IMG/VR virus record: IMGVR_UViG_3300032235_000437
Location: 1 to 64,000 of that record
DNA from: a virus
Strand: one strand, 5' to 3'
Length of the DNA: 64,000 nt
This document shows positions 13,958-49,185 of this stretch, piece by piece; positions within the stretch are counted from its first letter, which is position 1; each line of letters starts with the position of its first letter. A model generated the notes under the pieces. The model was not told the origin of the DNA and did not search any database. It saw nothing but the letters and a program-made list of their open reading frames with translations. Position numbers and translations under genes: made by a program.

Positions 13958-14206
13958 ATGAAAGCGTACAAAGGTTCTTTTAAGAAACGCAATGGCGAAA
14001 TTCGCTCAATGCTGTTCGCAAAGATTCAAGACTTGCCCGATGCTTTTCTAGAAGAAAAGATTATTGGCACAGGTTCAGACAAGAGCTATCCCGACGGCAT
14101 GGAACTTGTCTGGGATCTAGAAGAAGATAATTTCAGGGTATTTAATTGGAAAACAGTTGAAGGTCCGGTAAAGGAACTAACTGTTGACCAACATTACCAC
14201 AACTGA
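13958..14206 (+). CDS. Conserved small phage protein, SH3-like
   Basis: I choose the ATG at 13958, 6 bases after GGAG, over 13946 and 13955. The product (82 aa) begins MKAYKGSFKKRNGEIRSM and contains GMELVWDLEEDNFRVFNWKT. The pattern YKG.F.K.NGE.R.M.F and G.E.VWDL....FR.FNW is one I recognise from many aquatic phages. It is a small all-beta protein of unknown function. Confidence 0.7.
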   Translation: MKAYKGSFKKRNGEIRSMLFAKIQDLPDAFLEEKIIGTGSDKSYPDGMELVWDLEEDNFRVFNWKTVEGPVKELTVDQHYHN

Positions 14207-14477
14207 GCACTATGTACTCATAGAAACGGATGATATAGATTTTACTATGTTACGCGCTGCTATTAATATGCTAGCTAAAACTCAGTATATATTCCATGAT
14301 AAGGTTTTTGCTGAACCTTATACTCCGTACTATGATGCGTATCGTGATCACACATTTGTAATTGATCATGCATCTGAAGAAGATGAAACAGGCAATCATG
14401 TCTGGCTAACTTGTATTTCAGATGATAGCGTTAAAGTTGCTGGATATGTTCATCTAGATCAATTAATTATAAAATAG
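14184..14477 (+). CDS. Unknown protein (97 aa) with TTG start
   Basis: Starts at TTG 14184 with AAGGA 9 bases upstream and overlaps the preceding gene by 23 bases. It begins MTNITTTEHYVLIETDDIDF, is acidic, and contains YTPYYDAYRDHTFVID. No alternative ATG is in frame before residue 20. Not recognised. Its stop lies just before the tmRNA. Confidence 0.55.
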   Translation: MTNITTTEHYVLIETDDIDFTMLRAAINMLAKTQYIFHDKVFAEPYTPYYDAYRDHTFVIDHASEEDETGNHVWLTCISDDSVKVAGYVHLDQLIIK

Positions 14478-14509
14478 CTCTGATTACGTAAATTAGATGC
14501 AGCATGGAC

Positions 14510-14537
14510 CTGGGGGCGGTACCCAGCGGCTCCACCA
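14510..14537 (+). ncRNA. tmRNA acceptor piece: T-arm and CCA end
   Basis: A perfect 5-bp T stem with loop GGCGGTA, then the 3' acceptor strand and an encoded CCA. This 3' end lies upstream of the coding piece, which is the diagnostic of permutation. Confidence 0.9.
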
Positions 14538-14647
14538 TAGATACACTCGGTTGGGTTCCAAGTTTCACTTGGCTATTCCAATAGAGGGTGCTGGTTATCC
14601 TGTAAAATCCTGCCAGCACATTAGGATTTCCCGAGTGTATCTTTGAT
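14538..14647 (+). ncRNA. Intervening (excised) segment of permuted tmRNA
   Basis: AGATACACTCGG (14539-14550) pairs perfectly with CCGAGTGTATCT (14631-14642), a 12-bp helix stacked on the acceptor stem. Inside are hairpins CCAAG/CTTGG (14558-14572) and GTGCTGG/CCAGCAC (from about 14588 to 14618). Processing should release the CCA end and the GGGG 5' end. Confidence 0.85.
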
Positions 14648-14734
14648 GGGGTCGAAATAGGATCGACATGTTGAGTAAGAGGAAACCAGGAGCCAGTGCG
14701 CAAGCGACTGATAACCGCAAGAAAATTAATAATT

Positions 14735-14779
14735 GCAAACGATAACTTTGCTCCAGTATCTCTAGCTCTAGCAGCTTGA
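14735..14779 (+). other. tmRNA proteolysis tag reading frame ANDNFAPVSLALAA-stop
   Basis: Resume codon GCA at 14735, then N D N F A P V S L A L A A and TGA (14777-14779). ANDN at the start and a hydrophobic end with AA are typical of alphaproteobacterial tags; the last residues resemble ClpXP-type degrons. A pseudoknot follows: CGGT/ACCG (14788-14791, 14800-14803) with GGCTC in its loop pairing to GGGCC (14815-14819). Confidence 0.92.
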
Positions 14780-14848
14780 TTTACTATCGGTATGGCTCCA
14801 CCGGGAAACAGAACGGGCCGTTACACATCACAACACAAAGGACTATAT

Positions 14849-15688
14849 ATGACAAGACGTATTACAAACCAAACTCAAGTATTAACAGGTGGACTAACCG
14901 GAATTCAATCTGGAGGTTATGTTTATACTAGCCCATCAAATCTATACCCATCACCAGCTATTGCAAAAGCTTCGCTTATTGACGCTTTTAAACCTAAGCG
15001 TGCTGGTAAAAATGCAAAACTATCGCACGTAGTTTTTCTGCTTGATGACTCTTCATCTATGCAATCATGCCGTGATGTAACTATCTCCGGCTTCAACGAA
15101 TATCTAGCGTCTCAGAAAGCAGACGCAACTACTACAGGTATTAACACCGTAGTCTCACTGTACAAATTTGATGGTCGCGACGTAAAATGCGTATTTGATC
15201 GTCAAGATGTTAAAACAGTAGAACCACTAACTCATGCTACCTACAATCCTAGCGGTAATACAAATTTGCTAGACGCAATGGGCGGCATCCTAATGAGAGT
15301 AAACACTTTACTTTCTGACAAGAAAAAAGCTGATCGTGAATCAGTAATTATCAATGTGTTGACTGATGGCGAAGAGAATGCTTCTCACACATTTGACAAT
15401 GCTACTATTAAACAAATGGTAGAAAAAGCACAAGGCAAAAGCTGGGGATTCCTATTCCTAGGTGCTAATATTGATGCTTTTAGTGCTGGTTATGCATTAG
15501 GTTTTGGTGTACAAAATACTATGCAGTTTAGCACAAAGAACACTGAAGCTACTATGCGCGCTGCTAGTCGTATGACTAATTCACTAAAATCTGCTTACGC
15601 AAAAGGCGACTCAACTACTGTTGCATATGCCGCAAGTACTTTCACAGATGTAGAGCGAGCATCAGCACTAGGCCAGAGCAATGAATAA
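14849..15688 (+). CDS. VWA (von Willebrand A) domain protein
   Basis: I start at ATG 14849, preceded by AAAGGA; an upstream ATG at 14792 lies in the tmRNA. The 279-residue product has the metal-ion-dependent adhesion site DDSSS (residues 66-70, DxSxS) in VVFLLDDSSSMQSC, a later threonine loop NPSGNTNLLDAMG and an NVLTDGEEN strand with the third Asp. VWA domains bind proteins through the metal; in bacteria they often partner MoxR AAA+ ATPases. No ATPase is adjacent. The N-terminal 55 residues are Gly/Ser/Pro-rich. It overlaps the next gene by 8 bases. Confidence 0.85.
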   Translation: MTRRITNQTQVLTGGLTGIQSGGYVYTSPSNLYPSPAIAKASLIDAFKPKRAGKNAKLSHVVFLLDDSSSMQSCRDVTISGFNEYLASQKADATTTGINTVVSLYKFDGRDVKCVFDRQDVKTVEPLTHATYNPSGNTNLLDAMGGILMRVNTLLSDKKKADRESVIINVLTDGEENASHTFDNATIKQMVEKAQGKSWGFLFLGANIDAFSAGYALGFGVQNTMQFSTKNTEATMRAASRMTNSLKSAYAKGDSTTVAYAASTFTDVERASALGQSNE

Positions 15689-47698: not shown

Positions 47699-48401
47699 TA
47701 TTAAACCACTCTAAAACCTTTATGTAATCATCTTGAACATCTACAGAGATACTGTCTGATATTTCTTGATATGTGCCTATGTTTATACCTGCTACTAAAG
47801 CTCGCAGTAGCTCTACACCTTCTACTAACTCTAAGGTAGTAACTGTATGCGTATAAAACCGTCTAAGTGCTGACCTAGTAAAGCTAATTATACATAGTTG
47901 TTTTTTTAAAGGTATACTACCTCTAAAATTACTGGGACAGCTGCTTCGTGTTAGATAAAGAAGCCTATTTAGTTCTTCTACTACTTTTACTCTGTTTATA
48001 TCGTCATACTCAAGTAATTGATACGGCATAACAATATCTGTATTCAACAGTTTAGTATTATATATGAGTCTGGTTATTACTGCAGGATCAAGCATAGGCT
48101 CATCGCCTTGAATATCTACAATGATGCAGTCTTCTGGTAAGTTTAGTGATTCAGCAGCTTCTGCTATTCTATCAGTACCGTTTAAATGGCTTCCAGTCTT
48201 AACAGTAGATATACCGTAGTTGGTACATACTTCTATTATTCTATCAGAATCAGTACAAACATATACGGCATCTAACTCTGCACACTTTAAAGCTTGTTGC
48301 GCCACTTTTACTATCATAGGTACTTCGCCTATTGGTAGTAGCAACTTTTCTTTTAGCCTAGTGCTTTCAAGTCTTGCCGGTATTAAGCCATAGATCTGCA
48401 T
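47685..48401 (-). CDS. kdsB: KdsB-like CMP-Kdo synthetase (cytidylyltransferase)
   Basis: A 238-residue protein. IPARLESTRLKEKLLLPIG (residues 7-25), YVCTDSDRII, HLNGTDRIAEAAE (SGTDR), VDIQGDEPMLDP (QGDEP) and ISVDVQDDYIKVLE match the 3-deoxy-manno-octulosonate cytidylyltransferase order. Activates Kdo or a Kdo-like sugar (or 8-amino variant) as CMP-sugar. The insertion loop DDINRVKVV is normal. Together with a KpsC-like transferase (51202) a Kdo-type reaction is suggested. Confidence 0.85.
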   Translation of the reverse strand: MQIYGLIPARLESTRLKEKLLLPIGEVPMIVKVAQQALKCAELDAVYVCTDSDRIIEVCTNYGISTVKTGSHLNGTDRIAEAAESLNLPEDCIIVDIQGDEPMLDPAVITRLIYNTKLLNTDIVMPYQLLEYDDINRVKVVEELNRLLYLTRSSCPSNFRGSIPLKKQLCIISFTRSALRRFYTHTVTTLELVEGVELLRALVAGINIGTYQEISDSISVDVQDDYIKVLEWFNNGYT

Positions 48402-49185
48402 ATTGTTTTCCCATTAGATTACCTTTTACACTACAGTTTTTGCAAGAGCTATTAACAGCTCTATTGCCGCGAATTAGCTCTATACGAGTATTAGTAAATT
48501 CTTCACCTATCCACACATCACTTATATCATTTATAAGTATATTACCGAATATTTTTGATTTTTTCCAGTCATTACTACATAGCAGTACATCACCAGTAGT
48601 ATCTATTACAACTCTATATGATGGAAAATAACAAGGATTTGCTACACTTTGTTCCCATAACAATCCGCCTCTATTGTTAAAACCATACTGCTCAAAGTTA
48701 TCTTCTCCGTTATCGTAATGATCACGTACATGAATGTTAGTAGAAGCTAGTTTTTGAATTTCTGGATTATTATCATAATCATTAACAATTAACCTAGTTA
48801 AGCCAGCAGTAAATAGCTGAGAAGTAGTAAATTTTTTAGATAATATAGAGTCACCATTAGTAATTAACTCAACATCAAATACTGATAGTATTTTTATGAT
48901 TTCTAATATCTTAGGGTGTAGTGTAGGCTCACTGAACCCGCTTAATATGATATAACCCTTAAAAGAGTGACTAACTAATTGTGAAACTAATGTTTGTATA
49001 GTATCTATGCTAATATGTTTATTTACATTAGGATATAGACTAGCACTATGTCTTGGACAAAAACTACAAGTTCTGTTGCATAATTCTGTAAGATTTATAT
49101 CTACGGCAGCTAATCCTGGAAGCTTATCATTTCTAATATTACCTAAAGTTTTTGTTCTAAAGGCTAAGTGTTGTTCTAAGTTCAT
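48367..49185 (-). CDS. Radical SAM/SPASM-like enzyme
   Basis: A 272-residue protein. Cys36, Cys40 and Cys43 in ELCNRTCSFCPRH form the radical SAM cluster (CxxxCxxC); ILSGFSEPTLHPKI is the GGE-like motif (SGFSEP). C-terminal CYFPSYRVVI ... VLLCSNDWKK ... CKNCSVKGN is a SPASM-like second cluster region. Uses 5'-deoxyadenosyl radical; SPASM proteins modify peptides or sugars. Overlaps the KdsB-like gene by 35 bases. Confidence 0.85.
   Translation of the reverse strand: MNLEQHLAFRTKTLGNIRNDKLPGLAAVDINLTELCNRTCSFCPRHSASLYPNVNKHISIDTIQTLVSQLVSHSFKGYIILSGFSEPTLHPKILEIIKILSVFDVELITNGDSILSKKFTTSQLFTAGLTRLIVNDYDNNPEIQKLASTNIHVRDHYDNGEDNFEQYGFNNRGGLLWEQSVANPCYFPSYRVVIDTTGDVLLCSNDWKKSKIFGNILINDISDVWIGEEFTNTRIELIRGNRAVNSSCKNCSVKGNLMGKQYADLWLNTGKT

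What the first reader, a model, noticed from the sequence alone, without database searches (positions are those of the whole stretch)
14480..14825. Phage-encoded two-piece (permuted) tmRNA with all structural hallmarks
The gene order acceptor-intervening-coding, the encoded CCA upstream of the 5' GGGG end, the 7-bp acceptor stem with G3-U70, a perfect T-stem, the P2 pairing, the tag ANDNFAPVSLALAA with stop, and a downstream pseudoknot all occur in one ORF-free gap. Phage tmRNAs that I know of are mostly one-piece; a permuted one in a lytic phage would be notable. It points to a host with permuted ssrA (Alphaproteobacteria) and to a phage function in rescue of ribosomes stalled by host mRNA decay.
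Basis: partly seen in the sequence, partly recalled or inferred. Interest (0 to 1): 0.92.

Follow-up and report, generated by a model that had tools for sequence, protein, structure and literature searches.

The report
Phage two-piece tmRNA gene
A T5-like phage carries its own copy of the alphaproteobacterial-style, circularly permuted tmRNA gene, an RNA that frees stalled ribosomes; the gene is real, but many aquatic and alphaproteobacterial phages are already known to carry one.

Summary
Window 14476-14822 (+) matches Rfam tmRNA_permuted (112.5 bits, cut-off 47) and alpha_tmRNA (105.7 bits, cut-off 50; E 7.6e-28), and ARAGORN calls a permuted tmRNA. The CCA at 14535-14537, the 7-bp acceptor stem with G3-U70, the T-stem, the P2 pairing, the tag ANDNFAPVSLALAA* and the 3' pseudoknot are all present. 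They also recur in relatives, with compensatory base changes (96.9% of cells paired, 0/500 shuffles as good).
The record is an 80-kb T5-like siphovirus with no SmpB, tRNA or integrase detected, so the RNA must use host SmpB and AlaRS. A tmRNA gene precedes the VWA-domain gene in all nine contigs where I found that gene.
The novelty claim does not hold. A 2022 paper (PMC9004378) reported 53 phage two-piece tmRNAs, 50 of them from marine or aquatic phages.
One less usual feature is the discarded intervening sequence. It forms a hairpin with a covarying closing helix and is exchanged between phage lineages independently of the mature RNA.
Verdict: new member of a known kind.

The parts
14478..14537 (+). 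acceptor piece of the permuted tmRNA: 5' hairpin (14479-14497), P2 strand, T-arm (14510-14526), acceptor 3' strand, A73, encoded CCA (14535-14537); the mature 5' end is not known
   Evidence: RF04321/RF01849 hits; pairs and covariation
14538..14647 (+). intervening sequence, removed on processing; strong branched hairpin with closing helix 14540-14550 / 14631-14641
   Evidence: fold z -4.93; closing helix has 4 pairs with double-sided changes in relatives
14648..14822 (+). coding piece: acceptor 5' strand GGGGTCG, TLD core, P2 strand, tag, 3' pseudoknot; the mature 3' end is not known
14735..14779 (+). tag reading frame ANDNFAPVSLALAA plus TGA stop
   Evidence: sequence; ARAGORN tag ends identically
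14787..14821 (+). H-type pseudoknot: stem 1 UCGGU/ACCGG, stem 2 AUGGCUC/GGGCCGU
   Evidence: in L125 stem 2 is GUCACC/GGUGAC, a compensated replacement; 4/200 mononucleotide shuffles as good for the window alone
14849..15688 (+). downstream VWA-domain protein gene (279 aa), conserved neighbour of the tmRNA
   Evidence: phrog_7371 E 1.2e-44; tmRNA upstream in all 9 contigs found that carry this gene
14184..14477 (+). upstream small gene ending directly before the tmRNA
   Evidence: 82-84% identical protein in L123 and L124

Best explanation
This is a functional, phage-encoded alphaproteobacterial-type permuted ssrA gene. The transcript would fold with the acceptor and coding strands paired and the intervening sequence looped out as a hairpin. 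Host tRNA-processing enzymes would then remove the intervening sequence, leaving two RNAs held together by the acceptor stem and P2. Host AlaRS would charge it (G3-U70, CCA), and host SmpB and EF-Tu would bring it to ribosomes stalled on broken mRNA. It would add ANDNFAPVSLALAA, a ClpXP-type degron, and release the ribosome. The most likely benefit is keeping ribosomes and trans-translation capacity available during infection. Shown: the gene, its architecture, and structure conserved by compensatory change. Inferred: processing, charging, tagging and the benefit to the phage.
For: Rfam and ARAGORN hits. Compensatory changes in T-stem, acceptor stem, P2 and intervening-sequence helix: 20 double-changed cells, 96.9% paired, 0/500 shuffles reach either value, slid controls 28-44% paired. 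G3-U70 is invariant in six sequences. The tags of the window and its five aligned relatives all end in LAA, and those ARAGORN read in 10 isolate phages all end in AA. The tmRNA precedes the VWA gene in 9/9 contigs. Dense phage genes lie on both sides. No SmpB, so host SmpB is needed.
Against: No expression or processing data. No promoter above chance and no clear terminator near it. It is patchy among T5-like relatives: 3 of 22 mostly fragmentary records holding a relative of the RNR protein had one.
Confidence: 0.88

Rival explanations
1. A decoy: the RNA binds host SmpB or AlaRS and inhibits host trans-translation rather than carrying it out, as proposed for the tRNA-like-domain-only RNA of mycobacteriophage DS6A.
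For: No phage SmpB, so it would compete with host tmRNA; a DS6A-like molecule inhibits tmRNA (PMC4131195).
Against: The full tag frame with degron ending, stop codon and 3' pseudoknot are kept in relatives; a decoy would not need them.
Confidence: 0.06
2. A non-functional remnant of a host ssrA carried over by imprecise excision or transduction.
For: ssrA is a common integration site, and fragments occur in prophages (PMC9004378).
Against: Complete gene with compensatory changes, conserved position in related phages, no integrase or resolvase. Over the compared stretch it is at most 59% identical to the ten usable bacterial loci fetched, a small sample picked by one motif.
Confidence: 0.03
3. 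A tag with altered fate: the phage tmRNA competes with host tmRNA so that tagged proteins receive a phage-specified tag with different stability or adaptor preference.
For: Tag bodies differ widely among phages and from the bacterial tags sampled.
Against: The C-terminal residues that ClpX reads are kept almost everywhere.
Confidence: 0.1

Closest known systems
Alphaproteobacterial two-piece tmRNA (Rfam RF01849; merged model RF04321)
   Same: Permuted order, encoded CCA, acceptor stem with G3-U70, T-arm, P2, ANDN...LAA tag, pseudoknot followed by the ACAGAA-containing 3' region.
   Different: P2 domain shorter than the alpha consensus and preceded by a separate 5' hairpin in the window; intervening sequence of 110 nt, against a median of 86 nt over 123 mixed, mostly viral, loci.
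Two-piece tmRNA of Methylophilales phage Melnitz (PMC9004378)
   Same: Phage-borne alpha-type permuted ssrA without associated integrase; tag ANDNYVPVDYALAA.
   Different: Melnitz is a myophage with a glutamine riboswitch just 3' of ssrA; none is found here.
Permuted tmRNAs of roseophages and rhizobial phages (DSS3P8, vB_RpoS-V10, MD18, DSS3_MAL1, RcXuper, RpAliso, RcSimone-Hastad, RcRudolph, Cp1R7A-A1, Phosso)
   Same: RF04321 hits of 99-130 bits, AA-ending tags where a tag was read.
   Different: Different phage groups, several with tRNA genes beside the tmRNA; those compared are at most about 60% identical to the window.

Membership tests
permuted (two-piece) tmRNA, alpha type | covariance-model score above gathering threshold | tested here: met
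   RF04321 112.5 vs 47 bits; RF01849 105.7 vs 50 bits
permuted (two-piece) tmRNA, alpha type | acceptor piece with encoded CCA upstream of the coding piece | tested here: met
   CCA 14535-14537, GGGG 14648
permuted (two-piece) tmRNA, alpha type | 7-bp acceptor stem with G3-U70 and 5-bp T-stem | tested here: met
   all pairs form; U70-G3 6/6
permuted (two-piece) tmRNA, alpha type | tag frame starting with Ala, ending in a hydrophobic-Ala-Ala degron and stop | tested here: met
   ANDNFAPVSLALAA*
permuted (two-piece) tmRNA, alpha type | pseudoknot in the coding piece | tested here: met
   present at the same place in six sequences, with replaced pairs in L125; modest shuffle support singly
permuted (two-piece) tmRNA, alpha type | processing into two RNAs, charging with alanine, tagging activity with SmpB | not testable with these tools
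   needs RNA and protein from infected cells

The most novel reading that the evidence does not exclude
The intervening sequence, which is discarded from the mature RNA, is a selected or mobile module. It keeps a fixed closing helix (GATACA/TGTATC) but is replaced wholesale between phage lineages, perhaps to escape a host nuclease or to control processing.
Probability: 0.12. Interest if true: 0.5.

Novelty: new member of a known kind. Interest (0 to 1): 0.3.

Why it matters
It adds a T5-like siphovirus group to the phages with two-piece tmRNA and shows that the gene sits at a conserved place and is kept by selection on structure. It supports the view that phages of aquatic bacteria with permuted ssrA commonly bring their own trans-translation RNA. 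It also shows that such genes go unannotated in many deposited phage genomes. It does not change what is known about tmRNA.

Tried and rejected
A glutamine riboswitch or other known RNA in or beside the gene, as in Melnitz: none at permissive thresholds. The intervening sequence as a free-standing mobile element: a 20-nt exact probe found five viral contigs, and every one carries it inside a tmRNA gene; no match in phage isolates. SmpB in the phage or in seven related viral records, five of them tmRNA-bearing: none. Direct nucleotide match to isolate phages over the whole gene: none; only the coding-piece core finds them. Host assignment by nearest bacterial tmRNA: not informative; one-motif sampling gave Caulobacterales, Rhodobacteraceae and a few others, all at 56-59% identity. 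The tag-ending count is biased because my script preferred frames ending in AA; I rely on ARAGORN tags and isolate phages instead. My first P2 and 5'-hairpin pairings did not hold in L125-L127; only the RNAalifold 4-bp P2 was used for counting.

Full report
What is there. The window is bases 1-64000 of an 80,446-base viral record. Its major head protein, tape measure protein, replication genes, SbcCD-like nuclease and exonuclease match PHROG families, and the head protein's best isolate relatives (27-28% identity) are ~105-117-kb phages of enterobacteria and Aeromonas, which I recognise from general knowledge as T5-like. Cmscan places RF04321 at 14476-14779 and RF01849 at 14428-14822, both on the + strand and far over threshold. 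The RF01849 start at 14428 lies inside the upstream gene, so the real RNA probably begins after that gene's stop codon at 14477. ARAGORN calls a permuted tmRNA. No other RNA family or tRNA is found in the 80 kb.

Anatomy. The acceptor piece ends in CCA at 14537; 110 bases later the coding piece starts at 14648 with GGGGTCG. All 12 acceptor and T-stem pairs form, with U70 opposite G3. The tag is ANDNFAPVSLALAA with a TGA stop. A pseudoknot follows the tag.

More than chance. Five contigs carrying a relative of the downstream VWA-domain gene were fetched first, and all have a permuted tmRNA just upstream. Four more, found through the intervening sequence, also have both tmRNA and VWA gene; this second set was selected on the tmRNA. 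In the six-sequence alignment the T-stem changes three pairs on both sides, the acceptor stem swaps G4-C69 for C4-G69 between the window and its relatives, P2 changes one pair on both sides, and the intervening-sequence helix changes four. In total 96.9% of cells pair against 28-44% when partners are slid. The pseudoknot of L125 uses GUCACC/GGUGAC where the window uses AUGGCUC/GGGCCGU.

Mechanism. The RNA keeps what AlaRS (G3-U70), SmpB/EF-Tu (tRNA-like domain), the ribosome (tag frame, stop) and ClpXP (LAA ending) need, by established knowledge of tmRNA. The phage has no detected SmpB and so depends on the host's. This favours ordinary trans-translation over a decoy, but no activity has been shown. 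What the phage gains is inferred.

Comparison with what is known. PMC9004378 described the two-piece tmRNA of phage Melnitz and surveyed 18,146 phage genomes: 133 unique tmRNA structures, 53 of them suggested to be two-piece, 50 of those from marine or aquatic phages. PMC11915505 counts 79 unique bacteriophage tmRNA sequences of all forms and introduces RF04321. Only two of the 11 carry a tmRNA annotation in the stretch. Within the T5-like group the gene is patchy: 3 of 22 records with a relative of the RNR protein; most are fragments, so absence is weak evidence.

A detail that is less usual. Cut into segments, the window's gene is 84-100% identical to L123 and L124 in the mature RNA but only 35-39% in the intervening sequence. 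With L127 it is the reverse: 96% in the intervening sequence and 97% in the T-arm, but 43% in the leader/P2 arm, 57% in the region before the tag and 60% in the pseudoknot. This is best read as recombination through the conserved tRNA-like core. Whether the swaps are selected is open.

Verdict. Real, well formed and very probably functional, but a new member of a known kind.

Noticed in passing
window 14538-14647; L123, L124, L127, L250, L252-L254: The tmRNA intervening sequence is exchanged between phage lineages independently of the mature RNA: 96% identical to L127 but 35-39% to the otherwise closest relatives, with an invariant closing helix.
   Followed up: partly
L240, L241, L242, L243 (about 610-1230): GOLLD RNA (RF02032) lies a few hundred bases upstream of the permuted tmRNA in four roseophages, two with a tRNA-Arg inside the GOLLD span.
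   Followed up: no
L249 1441-1855: In Rhodobacter phage RcRudolph the tmRNA gene overlaps a deposited 'hypothetical protein' (RCRUDOLPH_61), probably a misannotation.
   Followed up: no
window 1-64000 and L122: The tmRNA is the only tRNA-like gene found in the 80-kb record, whereas several other tmRNA-bearing phages also have tRNA genes nearby.
   Followed up: no
window 14849-15688: A VWA-domain gene (phrog_7371) follows the tmRNA in all nine contigs found that carry it; in L038 and L114 the tmRNA and other neighbouring genes are present but no VWA match was found.
   Followed up: partly
window 48367-49185: Weak radical-SAM-domain match in a minus-strand gene.
   Followed up: no
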